A model generated the notes under the pieces. That model was not told the origin of the DNA and made no database searches. It saw only the letters and a program-made list of their open reading frames with translations. From a virus: a DNA stretch of 22,978 nucleotides. The stretch spans positions 1 through 22,978 of the IMG/VR virus record IMGVR_UViG_3300042887_001998, one strand, 5' to 3'. Numbering within the stretch: the first letter of the stretch is position 1; every line of letters starts with the position of its first letter. Positions 3,202 through 14,419 of the stretch are shown in pieces. The position numbers and the translations under genes were made by a program.

Positions 3202-5105
3202 TTCCGATACCTCTTTCCTTCTTTGCCCTCGGCGTTGATCGGGCAGCCTTGCGCCCATGCAGGAACTTGTGTCATGATGTCAATCATTTCGTCAAGCGAA
3301 CCAAAACCATCCGGCACTTCGCTAATGATTTCATCGTGTACGGACAGGATGACATTGTAGCCTTTAAGTTCCAACGCCATCATGGCCGTGGCCATCAGGT
3401 CGCGGGCGGTTGCTTGCACCACGTTCTCCGTCAACAGGCCACCCCAGATTATCTGGGATGTCCACTGACGCGTAACGCTATTCAACGTATCGACTTGCGC
3501 TGTATCTCTCATCGCACCCCAAGGAGTTTCACGCTGAATGATGCGCGGATTGTGGTACGTAAGCGACCGCCCGCTAGGTAGTGGAAGCGGAACCGTCCCA
3601 ACACGGCCTGCCCCCTTCACCATCTCTACAAAATCTTGCTCAACATCTCGCCAGTACTGCGCGATCCTGTGGTTCTTTTCACGGTAGACAGCCACGATGC
3701 GCTTAGCTTCGTCCTCGTCTACCTTGATACCCATCGTGGCGCACTGCTCGGCGAAGCGTTTGCCGCCCATGCCGTAGCCGCAACCCAAGATTGCCATCTT
3801 ACCAACCTGCCGTTGTCCGTCAGTGACGCTCTCCACGTCCACGTTGTAGATGGCCGATGCCATTTCTTTATACACGTCTCCCCCCTTTCGGAACGTCTCA
3901 ACGAGATCGTTCTGCCCTGCTACCCACGCAAGAACGCGGGCTTCAATCGCCGAGTAGTCGGCGAACATCAGTCGATGGCCGTCGTCGGCTATCAGCATCG
4001 AACGCAACAGGTCGGACGCCAGAACCGTTCCGGCCCCATGCTCCGACACATCCTTGTCCGCTTTGAGTTTGGCGATGATCTCGTCCAACTCGTGTTGTTT
4101 CTTTTGCGGACGTGGGAAGTTCTGCGGCTGCACCAGCTTGCCCGACCAGCGGCCAGTTGCCGCGCCGTGATAAACAAGAAGGCCGCGCATCCGTCCGTCC
4201 GCGTTAACCGCGTGCAGCATCGCGTCGTACTTGGCTGTACTGGACTTGGCTCCGTTCTGCCGAAGCAAAAGAACTTGACGGATTACTGGGTGCAGTTTGT
4301 CTGAGGTCAACAGCCGGGCGACGGTCTGCTTGTCAACAGACTTGGTGGCAATCCCGTGGCTGTTAAGCCAAGCAACTAAGTCCATGCCATTTGTCGCGGC
4401 CTTGACTTGGCCTTTGGTAAGGCGTTGGATTTCTGCGTCAATTTCTACGCTGGCATTTCCGGCCAGTGCTTTGACGCGATGCACTAGGTCAACGTCGAGG
4501 GCCACGCCTCGGTCGTTGATGCGTTGGTCAAGCTGATAGAGACGACGCTCAGCGTCGGGCATTGCGTTCAAGACTTCCGCGACAGACAGTTCCGTCCGCA
4601 CGTCCTGTCGGCAATAAGCGACAAGCGCCTCAATCTTACCCTTCGTGTTCCACCATGTGTAACTGCCGTCGGCGTTCACCTTACGTGGCCGTGCCATCCG
4701 GAGCATAAGGGCCGCGCCGGTCTTGTCCTTCTGTTCTTCAACGCCAAGGACCGCAGCCGCTTGGCCCAGTGCACGAGGCAGCCCCATCGCGCTGGCCTGC
4801 GCCATTGTGCAGCGCCATTGATTGATGCGGGTGTCGGGCCACTGATAGCGGCCAACCATGATCTCGTTCCAGATCGTGCGTTCAAAGTTGGCGTTCCATG
4901 CGGACAGCAATCCGCCCGCCCTGATCCAATCTTCTAGATAGGGGTCTACCGCATCGCCCGGCTGCCATACTAGCACGTCGTCAGACCACGGGGCCTTGTA
5001 TGCCATGCACCAGATGTCAGTCGATTGGTCAGCGGCGTACTTATAGACGCCAGTCTTGCGAAGATCGACGGCGCTGCGCGTCTCGAAGTCAATTGATACA
5101 GTCAC
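3198..5105 (-). CDS. Family A DNA polymerase with 3'-5' exonuclease domain
   Basis: A replicative phage polymerase of about 635 residues. The proofreading domain shows ExoI SIDFET (D6, E8), ExoII WNANFE (about 70-75) and ExoIII YCRQD (about 164-168). The polymerase domain shows the TGRWSG template motif (about 317-322), motif A DYSAIEAR (383-390), motif B/O-helix RQVGKMAILGCGYGMGG (432-448) and motif C LSVHDE with HDE at 590-592. All catalytic residues are present, so it should be active. No ATG exists at the 5' end. The GTG at 5105 is chosen because it makes a GTGA overlap with the stop of the upstream methyltransferase-like gene and has GGGG just upstream; another GTG at 5117 is possible. 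Confidence 0.93.
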   Translation of the reverse strand: MTVSIDFETRSAVDLRKTGVYKYAADQSTDIWCMAYKAPWSDDVLVWQPGDAVDPYLEDWIRAGGLLSAWNANFERTIWNEIMVGRYQWPDTRINQWRCTMAQASAMGLPRALGQAAAVLGVEEQKDKTGAALMLRMARPRKVNADGSYTWWNTKGKIEALVAYCRQDVRTELSVAEVLNAMPDAERRLYQLDQRINDRGVALDVDLVHRVKALAGNASVEIDAEIQRLTKGQVKAATNGMDLVAWLNSHGIATKSVDKQTVARLLTSDKLHPVIRQVLLLRQNGAKSSTAKYDAMLHAVNADGRMRGLLVYHGAATGRWSGKLVQPQNFPRPQKKQHELDEIIAKLKADKDVSEHGAGTVLASDLLRSMLIADDGHRLMFADYSAIEARVLAWVAGQNDLVETFRKGGDVYKEMASAIYNVDVESVTDGQRQVGKMAILGCGYGMGGKRFAEQCATMGIKVDEDEAKRIVAVYREKNHRIAQYWRDVEQDFVEMVKGAGRVGTVPLPLPSGRSLTYHNPRIIQRETPWGAMRDTAQVDTLNSVTRQWTSQIIWGGLLTENVVQATARDLMATAMMALELKGYNVILSVHDEIISEVPDGFGSLDEMIDIMTQVPAWAQGCPINAEGKEGKRYRK

Positions 5106-5704
5106 AGCGCACCCCACTGATCCGCCATTGCAGCGGCGATACCCTTAAACGTAGTGCTGCGCAGTTTCCACCTATCGGCAGATGGTGGCAGATAATGAAG
5201 ACGCTGGCGCTGATTATCCGGCAGCGCCATCATTGCTTCTTTGACGTTATCCGTCGGCACTAGAGGTGGAAGGTTCTTTAGCCATAGACAGGTCGCTTTC
5301 TGTTCCATGTGACCAAACATCCACGGCTGGATGGTCTGGGCCTGTTGCATACCGCCGATCCGTTCTTTGGCGTATTTGTGCATCACTGGGTTCTCAATGG
5401 CGATGCGCTTGATTGGCACATCCCAAAGAGCCTTAAAGAAAGCAGCGCCTTCATCTAGTTTGGCCCAGCGTGTTGGGTCTTTGTGCAGCCAAGTAACCCC
5501 AGCGTTGGTCAAGTAAGTGCAGGGTGGGTGGGCTATCATCAAATCCCAATCATGCCCATGCGCAAGCACAAGAGCGTCACCTTGGATATGCCAATGCGGA
5601 TCACCGTCCGTCGGCAACAGGTCACACGACCAAGCGTCGTGTCCTTTAGCCCGGAAAGCATCTCGGACTGTTGCGCTGTACTCGCAAGCCACTAGAATTT
5701 TCAT
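5102..5704 (-). CDS. Short C5-cytosine-methyltransferase-like protein
   Basis: A 200-residue protein resembling the SAM-dependent Dcm-like fold seen in many phages. CEYSATVRDAF (7-17) occupies the position of the SAM-binding motif I, AHPPCTYLTNAG (58-69, PPC at 60-62) matches motif IV with the catalytic cysteine, IAIENP (102-106) resembles the motif VI ENV, and NQRQRLH (164-170) resembles the QxRxR of motif VIII. It is much shorter than typical C5 enzymes and has little room for a target-recognition domain, so specificity, or even activity, is open. It is the first gene of the leftward replication operon, with an AGAGGGAAAG ribosome binding site, and diverges from the regulator at 5840. Confidence 0.6.
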   Translation of the reverse strand: MKILVACEYSATVRDAFRAKGHDAWSCDLLPTDGDPHWHIQGDALVLAHGHDWDLMIAHPPCTYLTNAGVTWLHKDPTRWAKLDEGAAFFKALWDVPIKRIAIENPVMHKYAKERIGGMQQAQTIQPWMFGHMEQKATCLWLKNLPPLVPTDNVKEAMMALPDNQRQRLHYLPPSADRWKLRSTTFKGIAAAMADQWGAL

Positions 5705-5839: not shown

Positions 5840-6622
5840 ATGAGGGAGTTTATGTCTAACAGTTTTATGCCGTGGCGCGCCGAAGAGGACGCTACACTCA
5901 CCGAACTTTACCATAAGAATCTGACATACGCGCAGATCGGGGAGGTGCTTGGCCGTTCTGCCGATGCAGTTGATACTCGGCGTAGAAAGATAGGGCTGAA
6001 GCGGGAGTTTGTTTCCCATAAATCGCCACCGCCAGATGACTTACGGGAGTTGGCGCGCACTATGAATGTGTCGCAACTCGTTAAACATTATGGCCGGATT
6101 AGGTCAGTGGTCGTTCGTTGGATGGACGAACTTAAACTTACGGAGATTGTTGTCAGTTCAAGCGGAAGAAAGCGGTCTGTTCCGGATACCTTCTGCACGA
6201 TGGCCCCGACCATGACATGCGCTCAACTTATGCGTCTGTACGGCAGCGACCGCAGAACGATTAAGGGTTGGCTTAAAGAGACGGGAACCGTCGCTGTATC
6301 AAAGACGGAACGATACGCCGAGGTAACTAAGTTCGTCCCAGCCGATACAGAAGAAGAGGAGACGGTCGCTCGGCGTGAGTTCTCCAGCCACACGAAACTG
6401 ATCGCGGCTGAAGCTGCGAACTTTCTGCGCCGCACGCACCCGTCGGTCCATCGTGCGGACATACGGATGTACGAGCAATCGGCCCACACATGGGGCGACG
6501 TTAAGAACGTACCCTTCCGGGGCGTCAATCAGTATTTTGTTTCAGGGAAAGGCATCATGTGGATCGACGATCTCATTGCCTATGCTCAGTCAAAAGGGTT
6601 TACAATCAAGGAGTTAATATAA
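5840..6622 (+). CDS. GcrA/Myb-like DNA-binding regulator with three helix-turn-helix segments
   Basis: A 260-residue basic protein. Residues 10-54 (MPWRAEEDATL...LTYAQIGEVLGRSADAV) form a SANT/GcrA-like helix-turn-helix of the kind common in alphaproteobacterial regulators. Residues 68-100 and 117-149 are two further copies of a second unit with the shared pattern TM-x3-QL-x3-YG-x5-(V/I)-x2-W, each probably another DNA-reading helix pair. As the first gene of the rightward replication operon it is a good candidate early regulator or origin-binding protein; that is inference. The start at 5840 has AAGAAGGG upstream. ATG 5852 with GAGGGAG only 3 bases away is the alternative. Its stop overlaps the next start (TAATG). 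Confidence 0.65.
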   Translation: MREFMSNSFMPWRAEEDATLTELYHKNLTYAQIGEVLGRSADAVDTRRRKIGLKREFVSHKSPPPDDLRELARTMNVSQLVKHYGRIRSVVVRWMDELKLTEIVVSSSGRKRSVPDTFCTMAPTMTCAQLMRLYGSDRRTIKGWLKETGTVAVSKTERYAEVTKFVPADTEEEETVARREFSSHTKLIAAEAANFLRRTHPSVHRADIRMYEQSAHTWGDVKNVPFRGVNQYFVSGKGIMWIDDLIAYAQSKGFTIKELI

Positions 6623-6792: not shown

Positions 6793-7031
6793 AACAGGTA
6801 TTAGCAGCACAACTGGCCGAGTGGATCGACAACAACACGCACGGCCTCGCCAAACGGGACGGGAATATAATTTATATCGAAGGCAAGATTGATGCTTACG
6901 AACTTCTCGTATATGCGCAGTCGCTTCAGCCAGCCAGAAGCACGGAGCTAATCCATGCGGACAACAAAGCGTCCTACACTGGCCGGTCTGTAAACGCTGT
7001 GGTTGAAGGTGGCGACTTTATGGGGGGCTAG
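6789..7031 (+). CDS. Small hypothetical protein, 80 aa
   Basis: An 80-residue soluble protein of unknown family. It has an amphipathic N-terminal helix (MKQVLAAQLAEWIDNN), a short strand-like segment (GNIIYIEGKID), a second helix (AYELLVYAQSL) and a flexible end. GGGGAG lies 8 bases upstream of the start, and ATGA overlap couples it to the 56-aa gene. It is part of the run of small genes ahead of the primase-helicase. No catalytic motif is visible. Confidence 0.65.
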   Translation: MKQVLAAQLAEWIDNNTHGLAKRDGNIIYIEGKIDAYELLVYAQSLQPARSTELIHADNKASYTGRSVNAVVEGGDFMGG

Positions 7032-7033
7032 TC

Positions 7034-7255
7034 ATGGACAAAGTAAGATGGACCGATGATGAACAAAAAGTGGAGTTTATTCCAGTATTCATCCTCGGTT
7101 TTGAAGAAGAGTTTGAACGCGGCGTAATACTAACGACGCCTGCGTATAAGATATTAACCGACGCCGAACCTGAGTTTGCGCTCTACGCCATCGACGCGGC
7201 GGTAGATATGCTGATGCAGAGACGGGACCAAATTGAAAAGAGGGAGTTGCACTGA
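7034..7255 (+). CDS. Small hypothetical acidic protein, 73 aa
   Basis: A 73-residue acidic protein that I do not recognise. Predicted order: charged N-terminus, hydrophobic strand VEFIPVFILGF, acidic EEEFERG, then a C-terminal helix (ALYAIDAAVDMLMQRRDQIEK). No membrane segment long enough to span a bilayer. GGGGGG precedes the start by 6 bases, and the stop overlaps the primase start as TGATG, so translation is coupled to the primase-helicase. A small partner of that enzyme is conceivable but cannot be shown here. Confidence 0.65.
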   Translation: MDKVRWTDDEQKVEFIPVFILGFEEEFERGVILTTPAYKILTDAEPEFALYAIDAAVDMLMQRRDQIEKRELH

Positions 7256-9729
7256 TGAAGTTTAAGACACTGTATGAGATCGGGTTCACCGATCTCGTGT
7301 CCGTCATCCCGCCGAACGCCGAGTTGTCCGCCATGTCTAAAATCCAAGCGGATCAGGCAGGCAAAGCACCCGGTCGGCAGAATGCGCAGGGCACATGGGG
7401 CGGCTACGCGTGGCAGGACTATGTGCCGACGCCTAATGACGTGGAGCGGTGGGACCGCAGCCATGCTAATATCGGCTTGAAGGCAAGCAAATATCCTGCG
7501 GTTGACATTGATGTTGTCAACGAGGGGCTGGCTCGTGTCATCGGTGATATGGCGGTGAAGGCATTGGGCAAAGCCCCGATGCGTATCGGTCGTTACCCCA
7601 AGCGCCTGTTCATGTATCGCACCGATGAAAAGATTGGTCGGATGCAGGTGCGGTTCCGCGATGGTCGCGGGGTCGAGCAGCTTGTAGAATTTCTAGGGGA
7701 CGGGCAGCAATACGTCATCGCCGGTATTCACCCTATCACTAAGGAGCCATACAGTCTTGATGTGGACTTGGAGACACGTGGTCCTGCTGGGTTGAAGAAG
7801 GTAACGCGGGAAAAGATTGAGCGGTTCTTTGCTGATCTGACGGAGACGTTGGAGATGATGGGCTGCCAGATTATCCACGCCGACAAGACGGCACAGAAGG
7901 CAGTCGAGCGGCAGTCGGTCGATCAGGCGTCGCTTACCGCGCCAAGCGTTGTCCATGTGGCTGCTGCGGTAACTGCTATCCCGAACAAGACCGAACACTT
8001 CCCCGACCGCGATGACTATATTCGCATGGGCTACGCCATCAAGGCCGCGTGTGGCCCGGACAATGAGGCGGATGCGTTCGAGATATTCGCAGGCTGGGCC
8101 GAGCGTTGGGAAGACGGGGTTAACTCGCTCGATACTATCGAAGCAGACTTCGGTCGTATGCACCCGCCCTATGAGTTGGGTTGGGACTGGCTGGCGGATA
8201 AGGCCGCGACCTTTGGCTACAAGCGCGAGGTCGATGAGTTCGATGTGACGGATTTCAGCGACGAAGACTTCGGCGTGGTGGCGTCAGCAGGCGAAACGCC
8301 CATTGAGTATAGCGACATTGCATTGGCGCAGCGCGTTGCTCGGCTACACGTTTCGGATATACGATACGTTGTGGGCGGCATGGGCTGGGTCGCATGGGAC
8401 GGGAACAAGTGGGCCAAGGACGTGGCGAACAAGCACATGTCCATCGTCCGCAAGGTCTGCGCGCAAGCATCGTCCGAGGCGTTGCAGAACATTGACAGCC
8501 CGCAGAAGGGTGAGCGGATCGCGCAGCGTGTGGCGTCGTATAATGTGATTGCAAACGTGGCGAAGCTGGCGGCGGTTGAGCCTACCATGCAGGCGACCAC
8601 CGAGCAGCTAGACGCGGACATCTATATCCTCAACACCCGGTCGGGCATGGTGGACCTGAAGACGGGGGTCTTGTTTGCGCATGACCGTTCTCGCATGTGC
8701 ACAAAATGCACATCGGTCGAGGCGGACTTCAGCAAGCCAGCCCCGCAATGGCAGGCGTTCCTCAATGAGGCGTGCAACGGTGACGCGGAGATGATCTCTT
8801 ACCTTCAAAGGTTAGCTGGTTATTCCGCGACGGGTAGCACCAAAGAGCATGTGCTTGCCTTCGCCCACGGGTCCGGCGGTAATGGCAAAGGGACGTTCCT
8901 CGGAGCGATAGGCAATATCCTTGGCGATTATGCCACCGTGGCCAGTGCGGACGTGTTCCTCGCGTCGAACAATCAGCGGCATCCCACGGAGTTGGCATCG
9001 TTGATGGGTGCGAGGCTCGTGCACGCGCAGGAGATTGACCCGTCGCGCAAGTGGGACGAAGCCAAGGTCAAGGCGCTGACTGGCGGGGACAAGATCAGTG
9101 CGCGCTTCATGCGGCAGGATTTGTTTGAGTTCAATCCGCAGTTCACGTTGATTATCGCGGGCAATACGAAGCCAGAGATTACTAACGTGGATGACGCTAT
9201 GCGTCGGCGTATGCACCTCATCCCGTTCGAGACCAAGCCCGTCCGCAAGGACATGGACTTGCCCGACAAGCTGAAGGAAGAATATCCAGCCATCTTGGCG
9301 TGGGTTATCGAAGGCGCGAAGGCTTGGCTGGAACAGGGTCTCAACCCGCCGCAGGCAGTAATCCAAGCTACCGATGAGTATCTCGCAGGAGAGGACGCAT
9401 TGGCCCGCTGGATCAGTGAACGCTGCGTGGCTGGTCCTGACAATGAGATGACTACCAATGAGGCGTTCAATGACTTCCGCGACTGGTGCAAGGATAACAA
9501 CGAAGCCAAGGGCAAGGACTGGTCGCAGCGTAAGTTCAACGGAGAGATGAAGACGCATGGCTTTGAACCCACAAGGGACCGGGCGACACGAACGAAGCGT
9601 GTGTTCCGTGGCCTTGAACTTCTCATTGGCGATGCGGATTACATGGTCATCAACGCCATGATTGATGAGCAATCGGACGATTTCTTTGGCGTTGAGATTA
9701 ACTTCAAAGCAGGCGAAGGAGATGAATGA
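7255..9729 (+). CDS. Bifunctional Prim-Pol primase / SF3 helicase (P4 alpha-like)
   Basis: An 824-residue replication initiator-type protein. The N-terminal archaeo-eukaryotic primase fold shows ANIGLKASKYPAVDIDV with metal ligands D84 and D86, and FLGDGQQYVIAGIHP with the nucleotide-binding H159. Residues about 245-320 look like a PriCT domain. After a D5_N-like linker, the superfamily 3 helicase core has Walker A GSGGNGKGT (539-547), Walker B VHAQEID (589-595), motif C AGNTKPEI (635-642, sensor N637) and an arginine cluster RRR at 650-652. All key residues are present. It should form a hexameric helicase that primes and unwinds at the phage origin, working with the family A polymerase. A GGGAG site lies 8 bases upstream. 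Confidence 0.9.
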   Translation: MKFKTLYEIGFTDLVSVIPPNAELSAMSKIQADQAGKAPGRQNAQGTWGGYAWQDYVPTPNDVERWDRSHANIGLKASKYPAVDIDVVNEGLARVIGDMAVKALGKAPMRIGRYPKRLFMYRTDEKIGRMQVRFRDGRGVEQLVEFLGDGQQYVIAGIHPITKEPYSLDVDLETRGPAGLKKVTREKIERFFADLTETLEMMGCQIIHADKTAQKAVERQSVDQASLTAPSVVHVAAAVTAIPNKTEHFPDRDDYIRMGYAIKAACGPDNEADAFEIFAGWAERWEDGVNSLDTIEADFGRMHPPYELGWDWLADKAATFGYKREVDEFDVTDFSDEDFGVVASAGETPIEYSDIALAQRVARLHVSDIRYVVGGMGWVAWDGNKWAKDVANKHMSIVRKVCAQASSEALQNIDSPQKGERIAQRVASYNVIANVAKLAAVEPTMQATTEQLDADIYILNTRSGMVDLKTGVLFAHDRSRMCTKCTSVEADFSKPAPQWQAFLNEACNGDAEMISYLQRLAGYSATGSTKEHVLAFAHGSGGNGKGTFLGAIGNILGDYATVASADVFLASNNQRHPTELASLMGARLVHAQEIDPSRKWDEAKVKALTGGDKISARFMRQDLFEFNPQFTLIIAGNTKPEITNVDDAMRRRMHLIPFETKPVRKDMDLPDKLKEEYPAILAWVIEGAKAWLEQGLNPPQAVIQATDEYLAGEDALARWISERCVAGPDNEMTTNEAFNDFRDWCKDNNEAKGKDWSQRKFNGEMKTHGFEPTRDRATRTKRVFRGLELLIGDADYMVINAMIDEQSDDFFGVEINFKAGEGDE

Positions 9730-10028
9730 TGTATGGGAATGATTTTATGAAATACAAAGAGGTGAGGGACGCGCTCAATGCCGAGGTGGTCAGTGACGAG
9801 ATTGTCGATGTGGTCAATAGCCCACCGCACTATAAGACCGGAGGCATCGAGGCCATCGAAGGGATCGAAGCGTCGATGGGTCCGGAGGCATATGCTGGCT
9901 ACCTCAAGGGCAATATCATGAAATATATGTGGCGCTATGAGAGGAAGGGGAAGCCGATTGAGGACTTGAAGAAGGCCCGATGGTATCTCGACCGGCTCAT
10001 AGGTTTACGTGAACGTAAAGCAGACTAA
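9726..10028 (+). CDS. DUF3310 domain protein
   Basis: A 100-residue protein with the full DUF3310 signature: VVNSPPHYKTGGIEAIE (28-44), then LKGNIMKYMWRYERKG (59-74) and EDLKKARWYLDRLI. The family is found alone in many phages and inside T7 gp1.7-like nucleotide kinases, so a role near nucleotide metabolism or replication is plausible, but the single-domain function is not established. AAGGAG lies 7 bases upstream and the start overlaps the primase stop (ATGA). The doublet ATGATG also allows a start at 9729. It is the last gene of the rightward replication operon, directly before an intrinsic terminator. Confidence 0.85.
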   Translation: MMYGNDFMKYKEVRDALNAEVVSDEIVDVVNSPPHYKTGGIEAIEGIEASMGPEAYAGYLKGNIMKYMWRYERKGKPIEDLKKARWYLDRLIGLRERKAD

Positions 10029-10051
10029 GGGGGCTTCGGCTCCCTTTTTTT
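10028..10051 (+). terminator. Intrinsic terminator after the replication operon
   Basis: A seven-pair stem (AGGGGGC at 10028-10034 with GCTCCCT at 10039-10045, one G-U pair) closes a TTCG tetraloop and is followed by a run of seven T. It begins at the last base of the DUF3310 stop codon. Confidence 0.93.
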
Positions 10052-10054
10052 AAA

Positions 10055-10340
10055 TCCGTGCACGGTTTGAGAGGGTCCGTGCATGGTTGGTGCACGGTTT
10101 AGGGCCAGATAAAATGGCTGAAATCTAAGGATGTGCCGGAAGTGCACGGTTTAAAAAAGTTAATCCGCTCTCACGACAGTAACAGTGTTAGAAGTGGTCA
10201 TATTACAATGTTACTTACTTATGGGAACCAATGGGCCGACAAACCGTGCACTCCGTGCACATTGGCGGAAATGCGTGGGTAAACCCGGCCCTAAACCCGG
10301 CCCGAACCGTGCACGGATTTTTCAAACCATGCACGGATGG
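10055..10340. repeat. Eight-copy GTGCAC palindrome array in two inverted clusters
   Basis: This gene-free gap (10029-10350) holds eight near-copies of CCGTGCACGG: 10056-10065, 10077-10086, 10088-10097, 10140-10149, 10244-10253, 10253-10262, 10307-10316 and 10327-10336. The fuller consensus AAACCGTGCACGGTTT is a 16-base palindrome. In the left four the conserved flank is mostly GGTTT on the right side; in the right four it is mostly AAACC on the left side. The clusters are therefore mirror images around an AT-rich centre (10150-10240) that also contains TAACAGTGTTA (10180-10190). A 12-base tandem repeat, TAAACCCGGCCC, lies at 10280-10291 and 10292-10303. An origin, packaging site or operator array are the main options. 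Confidence 0.85.
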
Positions 10341-10350
10341 CAGTTTTCCG

Positions 10351-10866
10351 TTAATCGTCGTCAAACACACCCGGCAAGTCGTCTGCATCGAGGTTATGAG
10401 AGCCGACTTGCTTGGGTGGCGTGATGTCGATGGTGACTTCTTCTTCATGTGGATTTGACGACGCCAAGTTTAGCTGGCGCAGTGCATCAAGGTGGAGTTG
10501 GTTCACGTTGACTTGGACCGCTGCGGTCGGCTTGGCTTGGAACTTCTCCGGAGCAGCGACACCCGCCAGCCATTTGCGCGTTTCGATCTTGAGCCTGTCG
10601 GCGTTGGCCGATACGTTGTCCGAAGCGTCGGCAATATCGAGGCACTCATCCGCCCATTGATCCGCCGCGATTGTCCGCGCCTGCTTAAACCGCTCCTCTC
10701 TATCTGGGTCTTTGCGTATCCAATGGTAGAGGGATAGATTGCTGATGTTTAGTTCACGGGCAAGGCCGGCCATCGTCATGCCGGAAGCAATCTTCTCAAG
10801 CAGAACGACCTCGCCAACCTTGTCTAAGTTTGACGCAATGGTGCGTCGTTTAATATGTCCAGCCAT
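10351..10866 (-). CDS. Terminase small subunit (Sf6-like)
   Basis: A 171-residue protein. The N-terminal helix-turn-helix (about 20-52, GLARELNISNLSLYHWI) is followed by the conserved helical region FKQARTIAADQWADECLDIAD and then RLKIETRKWLAGVAAPEKF, which is characteristic of Sf6 gp1-type small terminases. These form rings that recognise the packaging site and regulate the large subunit. The C-terminal 60 residues are acidic and probably flexible, ending GVFDDD, where large-subunit contacts are plausible. Unusually it lies on the opposite strand from the large subunit and 3.5 kb away, at the end of a leftward accessory operon. AAGGA lies 8 bases upstream of the ATG. Confidence 0.85.
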   Translation of the reverse strand: MAGHIKRRTIASNLDKVGEVVLLEKIASGMTMAGLARELNISNLSLYHWIRKDPDREERFKQARTIAADQWADECLDIADASDNVSANADRLKIETRKWLAGVAAPEKFQAKPTAAVQVNVNQLHLDALRQLNLASSNPHEEEVTIDITPPKQVGSHNLDADDLPGVFDDD

Positions 10867-10869
10867 GTC

Positions 10870-10962
10870 TTATCCTTTAAACAGCCATATAAGCCCGTAT
10901 ACGGCCCCTAGAGAGGCATATAGGGCAATTGCTAGGTTATGGTCCCGATTGTATCTATGCAC
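10870..10962 (-). CDS. Candidate 30-aa single-span membrane peptide (GTG start)
   Basis: A 30-residue frame starting at GTG with AAGGGG 8 bases upstream. It overlaps the last 8 bases of the XRE gene and stops 3 bases before the small-terminase ATG, so it exactly fills the interval between two real genes. Residues 10-28 (LAIALYASLGAVYGLIWLF) form one hydrophobic span, preceded by a basic, polar N-terminus and followed by KG. It could be a small membrane peptide or only a coupling device for terminase translation. No family is recognised; the tight fit and good ribosome binding site are the support. Confidence 0.42.
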   Translation of the reverse strand: MHRYNRDHNLAIALYASLGAVYGLIWLFKG

Positions 10963-11134
10963 GCTCCAGACCCCTTAGAAACGTCTCTAAGAGGATAGAG
11001 ACCGGGGCGGGCACTGAACGCCCGCCTTGCTCATAGTATCTTATCGACCGTTCGGACAGTCCAATCTTGCGGGCAAGATGCCCCTGCGTCATGTTTAGCT
11101 TCTCGCGTGTTGCTTTAAACTCATCACTTGTCAT
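10955..11134 (-). CDS. XRE-family helix-turn-helix protein, 59 aa
   Basis: A compact 59-residue protein consisting almost only of a lambda-repressor-like helix-turn-helix: FKATREKLNMTQGHLARKIG followed by LSERSIRYYEQGGR, where TQGHLARKIG and SERSIRYYEQG are the two signature helices. It has no dimerisation or protease domain, so it resembles Cro or a small antirepressor-type regulator rather than a full CI repressor. AGGA lies 9 bases before the ATG. Its leader consists of the heptanucleotide repeat at 11146-11222, and it is followed by the 30-aa membrane peptide and the small terminase, so it may control packaging gene expression or its own operon. Confidence 0.75.
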   Translation of the reverse strand: MTSDEFKATREKLNMTQGHLARKIGLSERSIRYYEQGGRSVPAPVSILLETFLRGLERA

Positions 11135-11145
11135 TTGCTTTGATC

Positions 11146-11222
11146 CTAAAAACTAAAATCTAAAATCTAAAATCTAAAAACTAAAATCTAAAATCTAAAA
11201 TCTAAAATCTAAAAACTAAAAT
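11146..11222. repeat. Heptanucleotide tandem repeat, 11 units of CTAAAAT/CTAAAAA
   Basis: Eleven perfect 7-base units run head to tail. Units 1, 5 and 10 are CTAAAAA and all others CTAAAAT. The array lies between the 64-aa gene and the XRE gene and forms the XRE leader on the minus strand; the TAG stop of the 64-aa gene is built from the next partial unit (11223-11225). Because 7 is not a multiple of 3 and each unit contains TAG on the minus strand, the array closes all three leftward reading frames. It is pure enough to be length-variable by slippage. Confidence 0.95.
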
Positions 11223-11417
11223 CTAAGTTTCGCCCTTCAATGCTTTTTCAGCGTCTTCGATCAATTCAATGGGCGGGTAACGCAGATAGCAGACGTGATC
11301 AGCGTTTATCACGCCAAGGAATTCCAGATATTCAAGCAGGCGATAGGCTAAGGTGGCTTCTGCCCGTTCGGTGTATCGGTCGAACACAATGTCGTCTTCG
11401 TCTTCGTTGTCGTTCAT
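11223..11417 (-). CDS. Small hypothetical acidic protein, 64 aa
   Basis: A 64-residue protein of unknown family. A very acidic start (MNDNEDEDDIVFD) leads into a helical region (RAEATLAYRLLEYLEFLGVI) and a short C-terminal helix ending EDAEKALKGET. The start at 11417 overlaps the stop of the upstream 45-aa gene as ATGA, and AAGG lies in the upstream leader. A longer frame starting at 11489 is less likely because it would overlap that gene out of frame. Its stop codon abuts the heptanucleotide repeat array. Confidence 0.55.
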   Translation of the reverse strand: MNDNEDEDDIVFDRYTERAEATLAYRLLEYLEFLGVINADHVCYLRYPPIELIEDAEKALKGET

Positions 11418-11551
11418 TTGCTTGGCCCTTGCTCTTTTAGGCGCTTGGCTTCTGCAAATGTTAGGCCTTCCGAATTGCGCAATGGCCAAGCATTGTCGGA
11501 CGATACGCGGCTTTTGTGGCCCATTGGCGCGGCTTGTTGCGGCTTGATCAC
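11414..11551 (-). CDS. Small hypothetical protein, 45 aa (GTG start)
   Basis: A 45-residue basic, glutamine- and proline-rich protein beginning at GTG. It is supported by a strong TAAGGGAGAATAAC leader almost identical to that of the GP88-like gene, and by the ATGA overlap of its stop with the 64-aa gene. The C-terminal half (LTFAEAKRLKEQGPSK) looks like a short helix. I do not recognise the family. Confidence 0.55.
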   Translation of the reverse strand: MIKPQQAAPMGHKSRVSSDNAWPLRNSEGLTFAEAKRLKEQGPSK

Positions 11552-11634
11552 GTTATTCTCCCTTACTGTTGTTGGCACTAGCGCCATAAACGCCGCGCCC
11601 TATTGATAGGCGCGGCTAATATGGCGGTAACGGA

Positions 11635-11796
11635 TCAATCGTTTAAATGTCCCTTTAACAATGCGTGAACTAGGCGTGCCTCACTTTTGCCTATCTTATG
11701 GCGTGATCGCCGGTTATGCGACGCAATCGATCGATTGACGCTATCGGCGCTATACGCCGCGCCCGGTTGTTTGTCCGTTATAACAAAGCTTTTCAT
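11635..11796 (-). CDS. Small hypothetical basic protein, 53 aa
   Basis: A 53-residue, strongly basic protein (SHNRRSRHKIGK in the middle) that could bind nucleic acid; no family is recognised. The ATG at 11796 overlaps the stop of the 104-aa gene (TAATG), and GGAAGGGAAAGC provides the ribosome binding site. That leader is repeated nearly base for base before the 104-aa gene. The 83 bases after its stop, up to the 45-aa gene, hold nothing I can name. Confidence 0.55.
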   Translation of the reverse strand: MKSFVITDKQPGAAYSADSVNRSIASHNRRSRHKIGKSEARLVHALLKGHLND

Positions 11797-12110
11797 TAGG
11801 CTTTCCCTTCCCCGTTAATAACCGGCGCATTATCAATAATTGACCAGGCCTGGTCTGCCCCGATTTTATCCGATAAATCCTGCAATGCTAACATTGCGTC
11901 AATGCGCTTATTGCGCTTACGATATGAATTATGATTTAAAATCATATAGGGCCGTAAATCGCAAATGCGCCTACCAGATGCATAATGCGTCAACGTTTCC
12001 CTATGAACAAAAGCCCTAAGCTTTCGATTGCCTAATGATAAAATCATAACTTGACCGGCAACAGGACGCGTCGATCCGTCAACGCAAATAATATCGATTG
12101 TTTTTGCCAT
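11796..12110 (-). CDS. Hypothetical protein, 104 aa
   Basis: A 104-residue protein of unknown family. The N-terminal half is strand-rich (TIDIICVDGSTRPVAGQVMIL, RAFVHRETLTHYASGRRICDL), suggesting a small beta fold; the C-terminal half has a basic helix (NSYRKRNKRIDAMLALQDL) and a terminal SIIDNAPVINGEGKA. GGAAGGGAAAGCATA precedes the start, which overlaps the stop of the 59-aa gene by one base. The stop in turn overlaps the next start, so the small genes form a chain of coupled cistrons. Confidence 0.65.
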   Translation of the reverse strand: MAKTIDIICVDGSTRPVAGQVMILSLGNRKLRAFVHRETLTHYASGRRICDLRPYMILNHNSYRKRNKRIDAMLALQDLSDKIGADQAWSIIDNAPVINGEGKA

Positions 12111-12301: not shown

Positions 12302-13165
12302 TTATCCTACTACAAATCCGGATTGATCTTTACGGGCCTTGCCCTTGGCGTATAGTGCCACAATAACGCCCTTAGGCTCTAAGTGCCTAATGTCGCTATT
12401 GTCACCGTCAACGACGGGAAGGCCTAAAAACGTTTCGCCATTGGCCAGCATTGCGTCAACGATTGATCGATCACGAAAAACAACCGCGATCCGTTCACCA
12501 TTAGCAACGGCCTTAGCGACATAAGGCGCATAATCAGGCACGCCGCTATAGCTAAACGTTAGATCATAATTAGCCGGTATATGCTTACGGTTAGCGATCT
12601 TTGTATAATCATAAAATTGGATATCTGGTAAAGCTTGCATAATGTTAGCGTAAGCATAGCCGAGACCAACGTTTTCCCAACGAATATCGCTTGTACCGTT
12701 AAGCCTAACTATAAGCTTATAGCCTTTACGCTTGGCTTTAGCGCGCTCACGGATCAATTCATTATGCAATTGATTCATGAAAAGATCGCGGTACTGATTA
12801 AAATATAACGTCTTACGCAAACGCGAAAGCATAACGTTTGACATTGCGCCGCGCCCTGCCGTGAATAGGCAGGCTTTTTCGCAACCGGCGGTTTTCGCCA
12901 TTGGGCACAATTGCACGCCCGATTGCATTGCGGGCATAAGATACAATATGGCGGTTTTGATCCCGTATTTTTCGCCTTTAATTGTTTTGGCGTTAGTGTC
13001 GATCCCTAAGAGCTTTTCCGGAAAGCGACTAAACAACGAACGATTGTGAGCGTCGCCTAATATCTGCAATTGGATATCAAGCGCCAAGCCGGATATATCA
13101 TACGCAAGCGCCGCGTCACCGAACGATTGGTTATAAGCGAACGGGTGATTAACTAAGTGTAACAT
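12302..13165 (-). CDS. GP88-like protein
   Basis: A 287-residue protein resembling the GP88 family (named from an actinophage gene product). Visible marks: LYLMPAMQSGVQLCPMAKT followed by GCEKACLFTAGRG (four clustered cysteines about residues 85-100), a basic helix with RERAKAKRKGYK, then VRLNGTSDIRWE, FYDYTKI, LTFSYSG, and a final VDGDNSDIRHLEP. The alternating strand-helix order suits an alpha/beta barrel-like fold, and the cysteines could bind metal. The biochemical role of the family is not known to me. AAGGGAGAATAAA supports the start at 13165. Its codon use is AT-richer than the replication genes. Confidence 0.6.
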   Translation of the reverse strand: MLHLVNHPFAYNQSFGDAALAYDISGLALDIQLQILGDAHNRSLFSRFPEKLLGIDTNAKTIKGEKYGIKTAILYLMPAMQSGVQLCPMAKTAGCEKACLFTAGRGAMSNVMLSRLRKTLYFNQYRDLFMNQLHNELIRERAKAKRKGYKLIVRLNGTSDIRWENVGLGYAYANIMQALPDIQFYDYTKIANRKHIPANYDLTFSYSGVPDYAPYVAKAVANGERIAVVFRDRSIVDAMLANGETFLGLPVVDGDNSDIRHLEPKGVIVALYAKGKARKDQSGFVVG

Positions 13166-13738: not shown

Positions 13739-14419
13739 TTGGCAGTTTATGGATACACACGCGTCTCGACTGAAGACCAGATCGAGAACACATCGCTCGA
13801 CGATCAAGCACGCCAAATCCAAGGCATCGCGCTCACACATAATATGGAACTAGACCATATCTACGAAGAGCGGGGCGTCTCCGGCGGCGTTCCGCTGCTA
13901 CGCCGAGAAGAAGGTTGCAAGCTGGCGTTCCTCCGGCCGGGCGATACTGTCATCGTATCGAAGCTAGACCGTATGTTCCGCGATGCGCGGGACGCACTAA
14001 ACGTGATTGCCGACTGGGAGGGGGCCAACATCAACCTAATCATCAACGGCTACGGCAATGTGATGGACAAGGCCAACCCGAACGGACGCTTCATGCTAGA
14101 GATCATGGCCGTCTTCTCTGGTGAGGAGCGCCGCCGTATCAGAGAACGTGTCACCGCCGGTAAGAGGGCCAAGAAGTCACAAGGTGGATATGTCGGTGGC
14201 AAAGTGCCATTCGGCTTTAAGAAGTCAGGCACAGGCCGCAAGGCCAAGCTGCACCCAGAGCCAAACGCGCAGGACGCGCTAATAACAATGAAAGCCGCAC
14301 GCGTTAAAGGTCATAGCTACCGCGATATTGCTATTATCGTAGCAAAGCGTCATGGTATATCCGTTAGCCATCAAACAATCGCACGTGTAATCAGGGGAGA
14401 TAAGAATGACGAAATCTGA
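13739..14419 (+). CDS. Serine recombinase (resolvase/invertase family, TTG start)
   Basis: A 226-residue site-specific recombinase. The N-terminal catalytic domain has YTRVSTEDQ with the nucleophile S10 and R8, the KLDRMFRDARD motif (R78, R81) and the E-helix region FSGEERRRIRERV. From about 150 it has a short 'Recombinase'-type segment (GGKVPFGF, then a helix-turn-helix around YRDIAIIVAKRHGISVSHQTIARVI), so it is longer than resolvases but far shorter than large serine integrases. The start is TTG with GGGAG 7 bases upstream; no in-frame ATG would keep the catalytic segment. It overlaps the large terminase by 14 bases. It could move the adjacent accessory block, resolve genomes, or act in integration. 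Confidence 0.85.
   Translation: MAVYGYTRVSTEDQIENTSLDDQARQIQGIALTHNMELDHIYEERGVSGGVPLLRREEGCKLAFLRPGDTVIVSKLDRMFRDARDALNVIADWEGANINLIINGYGNVMDKANPNGRFMLEIMAVFSGEERRRIRERVTAGKRAKKSQGGYVGGKVPFGFKKSGTGRKAKLHPEPNAQDALITMKAARVKGHSYRDIAIIVAKRHGISVSHQTIARVIRGDKNDEI

What the first reader, a model, noticed from the sequence alone, without database searches (positions are those of the whole stretch)
10055..10340. Mirror-image array of eight GTGCAC palindromes around an AT-rich core
Eight near-copies of CCGTGCACGG lie within 281 bases of a convergent gene gap, where promoter operators are not expected. Left copies carry GGTTT on their right, right copies carry AAACC on their left, so the array is a large dyad. 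Pairs even match in detail: TCCGTGCACGGTT (10055-10067) is inverted exactly at 10305-10317, the GCATGG variant at 10077-10086 is inverted at 10327-10336, and GTGCACGGTTT (10142-10152) is inverted at 10241-10251. The centre is AT-rich. P4 alpha-type primases, like the one encoded just upstream, are known to bind iterons at their origin, so a phage origin is my first choice; a small-terminase packaging site is the second, as that gene starts right beside it.
Basis: partly seen in the sequence, partly recalled or inferred. Interest (0 to 1): 0.77.

Follow-up and report, generated by a model that had tools for sequence, protein, structure and literature searches.

The report
Phage origin with coevolving initiator sites
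The mirror-image repeats are most likely the spot where a family of uncultured phages starts copying its DNA, bound by the phage's own primase-helicase, and related phages have changed the repeats and the matching protein residues together many times.

Summary
The array is real and larger than reported: twelve sites, six per arm, with mirrored spacings (outward 9-31-12-11-21 left, 9-31-12-11-20 right) around an 88-bp core; four sites use GGGCC or GTGCC words. All 86 distinct DUF3310/terS gaps examined (the window's own included; 4 found only through the array's words) carry such an array. The word differs between relatives (GTGCAC/GTGCCG/GGGCCG versus GGGACG, GGGACAC, GCGGACG). Of 18 window proteins, 15 had enough rows to test; only the primase-helicase covaries strongly with the word, at residues 733, 735, 762, 763, 772 and 774, which map to the helix-2 start, recognition helix and wing of a predicted winged helix. 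DUF3310, which lies between these codons and the array, stays near background, so linkage does not explain it. On a primase tree the word changes 17 times; in 13 independent pairs residue 774 goes the same way in about 11.5, opposite in none. Best reading: a replication origin bound by the primase-helicase, working like P4 alpha/ori and SaPI Rep/ori. A packaging site or operators are not supported. Binding and origin activity were not measured; L077 and a collapsed contig (L080) break the rule.

The parts
10058..10068 (+). array site L1, GTGCACGGTTT
10079..10089 (+). array site L2, GTGCATGGTTG
10090..10100 (+). array site L3, GTGCACGGTTT
10102..10112 (+). array site L3b, GGGCCAGATAA (variant word in a conserved slot)
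10133..10143 (+). array site L4a, GTGCCGGAAGT (variant word)
10142..10152 (+). array site L4b, GTGCACGGTTT
10153..10240 (.). core between the arms, AT-rich in its middle
   Evidence: core type and word type vary independently
10178..10215 (.). core dyad AGTAACAGTGTTA (10178-10190) / TTACAATGTTACT (10203-10215), present in arrays of both main word types
10241..10251 (-). array site R1, GTGCACGGTTT
10250..10260 (-). array site R1b, GTGCACGGAGT
10281..10291 (-). array site R2, GGGCCGGGTTT (variant word)
10293..10303 (-). array site R3, GGGCCGGGTTT (variant word)
10304..10314 (-). array site R4, GTGCACGGTTC
10324..10334 (-). array site R5, GTGCATGGTTT
7255..9729 (+). primase-helicase (824 aa; D5_N, DUF5906, P4-family primase C-terminal segment), proposed initiator
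9400..9624 (+). codons 716-790, predicted C-terminal winged helix; covarying codons 733/735, 762/763, 772 and 774 lie at 9451-9576
10029..10052 (+). terminator-like hairpin plus T run between the DUF3310 gene and the array
   Evidence: read from the sequence; no terminator scan was run

Best explanation
The array is the phage's replication origin. The C-terminal winged helix of the primase-helicase encoded upstream reads the half-sites (on the strand facing the core G-K-G-C-M-N-G-G-W-T-T in the window's type), probably with residue 762 in the recognition helix and residues 772 and 774 in the wing. Six phased sites per arm place helicase subunits on each side of the core, two rings open the core, and the primase domain primes both forks. 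Shown by sequence: the twelve-site mirror layout, its presence in every gap examined, and covariation of word and winged-helix residues. Inferred: direct binding, one site per subunit, double hexamer, core melting, bidirectional start.
For: Array in 86 of 86 distinct gaps, 4 of which (L166, L171, L172, L181) were fetched only by the array pattern and one of which is the window's own. 54 of 56 core-dyad arrays fill all 6+6 slots at fixed spacings; shuffled left arms filled at most 5 of 6 in 1,120 trials. Primase columns against word type, 77 rows: N762 in 54 of 54 type-A and 2 of 23 other arrays, R774 likewise 54 of 54 and 2 of 23, MI 0.72 of 0.88, mean permutation maximum 0.13; the next proteins are far weaker. 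Nucleotide MI peaks at 9400-9579 and from the 10000 bin to 10359; the bins between stay at 0.15 or less. Residue 774 against base 4: R-C 533, R-A 19, K-A 209, K-C 5 sites; arrays with R: 53 C, 2 mixed, 1 A; with K: 21 of 21 A (the site pattern admits only C or A there). Tree of primase codons 1-700, 57 arrays: 17 word changes, as many as shuffled labels give (16.1); 13 independent pairs, residue 774 same way 11.5, opposite 0, p about 0.0005; 762 same way 12.5, p about 0.0002; four control columns of DUF3310 and terS not significant. Nine loci outside the 86: 8 fit, 1 does not. Winged-helix model of the C-terminal fragment with PrimPol tail domains and RFX as best matches. Words form no other cluster in the 18 records scanned. 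Sites are helically phased, R 0.83-0.95 per arm. Mirrored arrays also lie downstream of related primases in AcaML1, Acinetobacter phage 4316 and BIP-1; 0 of 900 shuffled loci gave that pattern.
Against: L077 carries GGGACG words with N762/R774; L080 has a type-C primase beside a collapsed array with two GTGCAC sites. L144 keeps N762 with type-B words, so no single residue is decisive. P772 goes with A at base 6 in two arrays (0.85) but only 0.40 in L009. GC skew: the array sits at the cumulative maximum, not the minimum. 11 of 15 named-phage loci showed no convincing mirrored array. With a loose site pattern only 45 of 86 arrays counted exactly 6+6. Portal (0.45 against 0.34, 23 rows), exo (0.33 against 0.24, 32 rows), DUF3310 (0.16 against 0.10) and the 11223 gene (0.15 against 0.08) also lie a little above their mean permutation maxima. 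Only one of five structure models was good. No binding, mapping or replication data.
Confidence: 0.87

Rival explanations
1. A primase-bound regulatory locus (copy-number control or incompatibility, like P4 crr) rather than the start site itself.
For: Covariation shows only that the primase probably reads the array; in P4 the alpha protein also binds crr (recalled).
Against: No second cluster of these words in the 18 records scanned, several of them partial; mirrored arms flank a partly AT-rich core; some related primases have such arrays downstream.
Confidence: 0.08
2. A packaging site (pac) read by TerS.
For: terS ends beside the array and the array stays next to terS when genes are inserted on the other side.
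Against: The best terS column reaches MI 0.12 against 0.11 in 86 arrays; some relatives with type-B or D arrays have terS 94-98% identical to the window's.
Confidence: 0.02
3. Operators or stoperators for the regulator at 5840-6622, or att/res sites for the serine recombinase at 13739-14419.
For: Palindromic words in a phage; the regulator matches a D5-like regulator family.
Against: Neither covaries (regulator 0.22 against 0.28, 39 rows; recombinase 0.16 against 0.16, 50 rows); words form no other cluster; the gap is convergent.
Confidence: 0.02
4. The mirrored geometry is a DNA hairpin or cruciform recognised by shape, as proposed for pRN1 and BIP-1 (PMC4234260).
For: Large inverted repeats; the core dyad could form a hairpin.
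Against: Sites keep spacing and orientation while the word changes with protein residues, which points to base reading; BIP-1 has a mirrored 9-bp-spaced word array apart from the published stem-loop. Hairpin formation was not tested.
Confidence: 0.04

Closest known systems
SaPI Rep / ori (and SCCmec Cch2)
   Same: Helicase-type initiator whose C-terminal domain reads short repeats just downstream of its gene; [quoted passage not shown]
   Different: This phage encodes its own DNA polymerase; twelve sites in a mirrored 6+6 layout; word switching tied to a few residues. The SaPI origin papers were not held, so their layout was not compared
Phage P4 alpha protein / ori and crr
   Same: Helicase segment of the P4 family; a winged helix binds repeats at the origin (PMC4234260, section 18 part 1)
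   Different: P4's primase is described there as Toprim type, and Pfam found none here; no second site cluster like crr (crr recalled)
pRN1 ORF904 and Bordetella phage BIP-1 replicon
   Same: Primase, SF3 helicase and winged helix in one protein, origin downstream of the gene (PMC4234260)
   Different: Origin described as a stem-loop; here a repeat array, and BIP-1 also has a mirrored array
PLE RepA / ori of Vibrio satellites
   Same: Initiator DNA-binding domain and origin covary and are swapped (PMC8263062, passages)
   Different: Unrelated RepA_N initiator and whole-domain swapping; here a few residues differ
ASFV PrimPol (C962R) tail domain and RFX DNA-binding domain
   Same: Best structural matches of the predicted winged helix, Z 8.9 and 8.2; C962R is a dodecamer of two hexamers (PMC10516667, passages)
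   Different: Identity 10-23%, Foldseek E no better than 0.003; a shared fold shows no function

Membership tests
P4-family phage/plasmid primase (NCBIfam TIGR01613) | Match above the curated cut-off | tested here: met
   302.5 bits against 108.7
P4 alpha protein proper | Toprim-type primase domain | tested here: inconclusive
   Pfam matched D5_N, DUF5906 and a sub-threshold PriCT_2, no Toprim; the P4 domain type is taken from PMC4234260
P4 alpha protein proper | C-terminal winged-helix domain | tested here: met
   Predicted model, pLDDT 79 (the other four of five models 50-62), winged-helix order of elements; matches to PrimPol tail and RFX
P4 alpha protein proper | Structural match to the P4 origin-binding domain itself | tested here: inconclusive
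   Not among the rows shown
Repeat-array origin read by a helicase-type initiator (SaPI Rep type) | Cluster of short repeats downstream of the initiator gene | tested here: met
Repeat-array origin read by a helicase-type initiator (SaPI Rep type) | Initiator DNA-binding domain specific to the repeats | tested here: inconclusive
   supported by covariation only; no binding test
Repeat-array origin read by a helicase-type initiator (SaPI Rep type) | Autonomous replication from the site | not testable with these tools
   needs bench work
TerS packaging site | Site varies together with TerS | tested here: not met
   max MI 0.12 against mean permutation maximum 0.11, 86 rows

The most novel reading that the evidence does not exclude
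Origins in this phage family behave as interchangeable specificity groups: each arm carries one site per subunit of a hexameric helicase (6+6 for a double hexamer), and rival phages or endonuclease genes at the origin drive repeated joint switches of the twelve sites and of a few winged-helix residues. In support, an HNH-type gene lies beside all 22 arrays of the second layout (21 by a shared motif, L066 by a variant read by eye; one of them confirmed by Pfam) and the motif is in none of the other 64 gaps.
Probability: 0.25. Interest if true: 0.85.

Novelty: new variant of a known kind. Interest (0 to 1): 0.68.

Why it matters
It offers a natural experiment in how a helicase-type initiator changes its DNA target: many separate changes of type, a handful of residues and a matched base change, among otherwise very similar phage genes. 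It predicts a testable reading code (residue 774 with base 4, perhaps 772 with base 6) and suggests that mirrored repeat arrays, not stem-loops, may be the origin signal for some phages with D5-type primases.

Tried and rejected
Association of window proteins with the array word: 18 taken, 15 tested; the genes at 5102-5704 (8 rows), 11796-12110 (2) and 12302-13165 (10) had too few rows. Only the primase C-terminus stood far above permutation; portal, exo, ssb, DUF3310 and the 11223 gene lay slightly above their mean permutation maxima. C and D words were pooled with B; columns under 80% filled were dropped. Proteins outside the window were not tested. Association with the two layouts: no column stood clearly out (eight distant arrays left out), but an HNH-type gene does go with the second layout. 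AC-rich against CG-rich words within type A: top primase column 0.11, no permutation run. GC skew in 8 records: cumulative maximum at the array, follows gene direction. Full-length primase model: pLDDT 42. Sequence search of solved structures with the C-terminal profile: only C962R at E 0.33 and above. Host: one MAG contig with a 63% TerL, not enough to name a host. Mirrored-array scan of 15 named-phage loci (12 picked by hand from the 60 rows, plus AcaML1, 4316 and BIP-1): convincing in AcaML1 and 4316 (1 of 40 Markov controls as good), Staphylococcus DS11 (0 of 40) and BIP-1 (an 8-letter word; its 7-letter best was matched by 7 of 40 controls). The other 11 gave none; LastHope's hit (0 of 40) lies inside the primase gene; Enterococcus 4995_2 looks mirrored by eye only. 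The 9-bp-spaced 2+2 pattern tested was chosen after seeing it. Papers: passages of PMC7581432, PMC4234260 (with section 18, part 1 of 2), PMC8263062, PMC7145576 and PMC10516667; all others as search listings only.

Full report
Observation. The palindromes lie where stated and are far denser than chance (6 GTGCAC in 300 bp; at most 3 in 500 Markov sequences). Reading the facing strands gives twelve sites, starting at 10058, 10079, 10090, 10102, 10133 and 10142 on the plus strand and at 10251, 10260, 10291, 10303, 10314 and 10334 on the minus strand. Spacings outward from the core are 9, 31, 12, 11, 21 on the left and 9, 31, 12, 11, 20 on the right. The gap is convergent: the DUF3310 gene ends at 10028 and terS at 10351.

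Relatives. Two protein scans and one pattern scan of IMG/VR plus five loci of the window itself gave 184 loci; 156 hold both neighbouring genes and 86 distinct gaps, all convergent. One of the 86 is the window's own and four (L166, L171, L172, L181) came only through the array pattern, so they say nothing about conservation. The protein scans kept the best 80 of 128 and of 116 relatives. Each of the 86 gaps was assigned a word family by its commonest words (61 type A, 21 B, 3 D, 1 C). Longer gaps have genes inserted between the DUF3310 gene and the array, which stays next to terS. Two main layouts occur, 21-11-12-31-9 and 10-20-45-10-9, each with type-A and with type-B words. A loose pattern counted exactly 6+6 in 45 of 86 arrays, the others showing extra or missed hits; a slot test filled 6+6 in 54 of the 56 arrays with the common core dyad, against at most 5 of 6 in 1,120 shuffled left arms. 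Site positions are phased near 10.5 bp in both layouts.

Which protein reads it. Amino-acid columns of 15 of 18 window proteins could be compared with word type. In the primase (77 rows) N762 and R774 reach 0.72 bits of 0.88, G763 0.62, P772 0.61, T733 0.55, N735 0.39, with a mean permutation maximum of 0.13. The best columns elsewhere are portal 0.45 (mean maximum 0.34, 23 rows) and exo 0.33 (0.24, 32 rows); DUF3310 has 0.16 (0.10), terS 0.12 (0.11), the regulator 0.22 (0.28), the recombinase 0.16 (0.16). Permutations ignore relatedness, hence the tree test below. At nucleotide level the association peaks at 9400-9579 and again from the 10000 bin to 10359, with bins of 0.15 or less between and 0.16 or less elsewhere in 7000-11559. 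Physical linkage would have raised the DUF3310 gene, which lies between. Residue 774 matches base 4 of the site (R-C 533, R-A 19, K-A 209, K-C 5 sites; the pattern admits only C or A there). With lysine 774, H772 goes with G at base 6 (0.81); P772 goes with A in two arrays (0.85) but only 0.40 in L009, so the second pairing is tentative.

Independence of events. On a tree of primase codons 1-700 (57 of 86 arrays had enough sequence) the word changes 17 times, about as often as shuffled labels (16.1), and residue 774 changes 15 times; these changes may be mutations or recombination. Thirteen independent pairs give residue 774 the same way in about 11.5 and never opposite (p about 0.0005), residue 762 in 12.5 (p about 0.0002), residue 772=H in 9 (p about 0.004); four control columns of DUF3310 and terS do not reach significance. 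Nine loci outside the 86 were read afterwards: L076, L084 (left arm only), L275, L276, L277, L278, L280 and L281 fit, L080 does not. They are not all independent: L076 is near L074, L277 near L278, and L275 near L079 in its primase, though in another layout. L077 is an exception inside the 86.

Structure. The C-terminal fragment (25 sequences) gave one good model of five (pLDDT 79; the others 50-62) with a helix at 758-767 and wing strands at 772-774 and 782-789 (fragment position plus 695). Foldseek found nothing better than E 0.003; best by VIA-align were the tail domain of the ASFV PrimPol (Z 8.9, rmsd 3.9, 88 aligned) and RFX (Z 8.2), values that can reflect a common arrangement. PMC10516667 (passages) compares that tail with the P4 origin-binding domain and RFX1 and describes a dodecamer of two hexamers. 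The full-length model was poor.

Generality. Fifteen hand-picked named-phage loci with related primases were scanned. Mirrored arrays downstream of the primase are clear in AcaML1, Acinetobacter phage 4316 and Staphylococcus phage DS11, and BIP-1 has one downstream of its rep gene, apart from the stem-loop proposed in PMC4234260; a mirrored 9-bp-spaced 2+2 pattern, chosen after seeing it, occurred in 0 of 900 shuffled loci. The other eleven gave no convincing array, so the layout is not universal.

What is shown and what is inferred. Shown: the layout, its conservation, and covariation with winged-helix residues. Inferred: direct binding, origin activity, one site per subunit, two hexamers, melting in the core. 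The iteron words form no other cluster in 18 records (17 relatives and the window; the patterns did not cover the GTGCCG words of G004). Known precedents are SaPI Rep and Cch2 (PMC7581432), P4 alpha and pRN1 (PMC4234260) and the RepA/origin swaps of PLE satellites (PMC8263062). Nine literature searches listed no paper that by title or abstract describes this array; most subscription papers are absent from that library.

Side finding. All 22 arrays of the second layout lie beside an HNH-type gene (21 carry a shared motif; L066 a variant, judged by eye); the motif is in none of the other 64 gaps. One of these proteins (L020) was tested and matches HNH_3 (49.8 bits, cut-off 24.8). Eight other gaps carry an AP2-like motif; of three such proteins tested two pass the AP2 cut-off. 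Such genes at the origin could drive its diversification, as proposed for PLE origins, but this was not tested.

Noticed in passing
L020, L066, L067 and other second-layout gaps: An HNH-type gene sits beside all 22 arrays of the second layout (21 by motif, L066 by eye); the motif is absent from the other 64 gaps. The residue before the HNH histidine is arginine in the sequences read.
   Followed up: partly
L050, L077, L112: AP2-like proteins in the gap beside the array; L112 and L077 pass the Pfam cut-off, L050 falls just below; eight gaps carry the motif.
   Followed up: partly
window 10178-10215: Core dyad of two GTAACAnTGTTA-like half-palindromes, present in arrays of both main word types; no reader identified.
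   Followed up: partly
window 10112-10126 and 10262-10275: A GGCNGAAAT-like element lies in the 31-bp spacer of both arms, on the same strand; similar GCAGAAAAC elements occur in relatives (read by eye).
   Followed up: no
window 13739-14419: Small serine recombinase (226 aa, Resolvase domain) just upstream of terL; sub-threshold similarity to Ccr recombinases.
   Followed up: no
window 12302-13165 (minus strand): Gene product 88 family protein (PF17338).
   Followed up: no
L080: Only about 106 bp between the DUF3310 and terS matches, with two array sites; may be an assembly collapse across the repeats.
   Followed up: no
L284 (BIP-1), reverse-complement positions 3791-3894: Mirrored 2+2 TTGCCTCG array, 9-bp spaced, apart from the published stem-loop.
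   Followed up: partly
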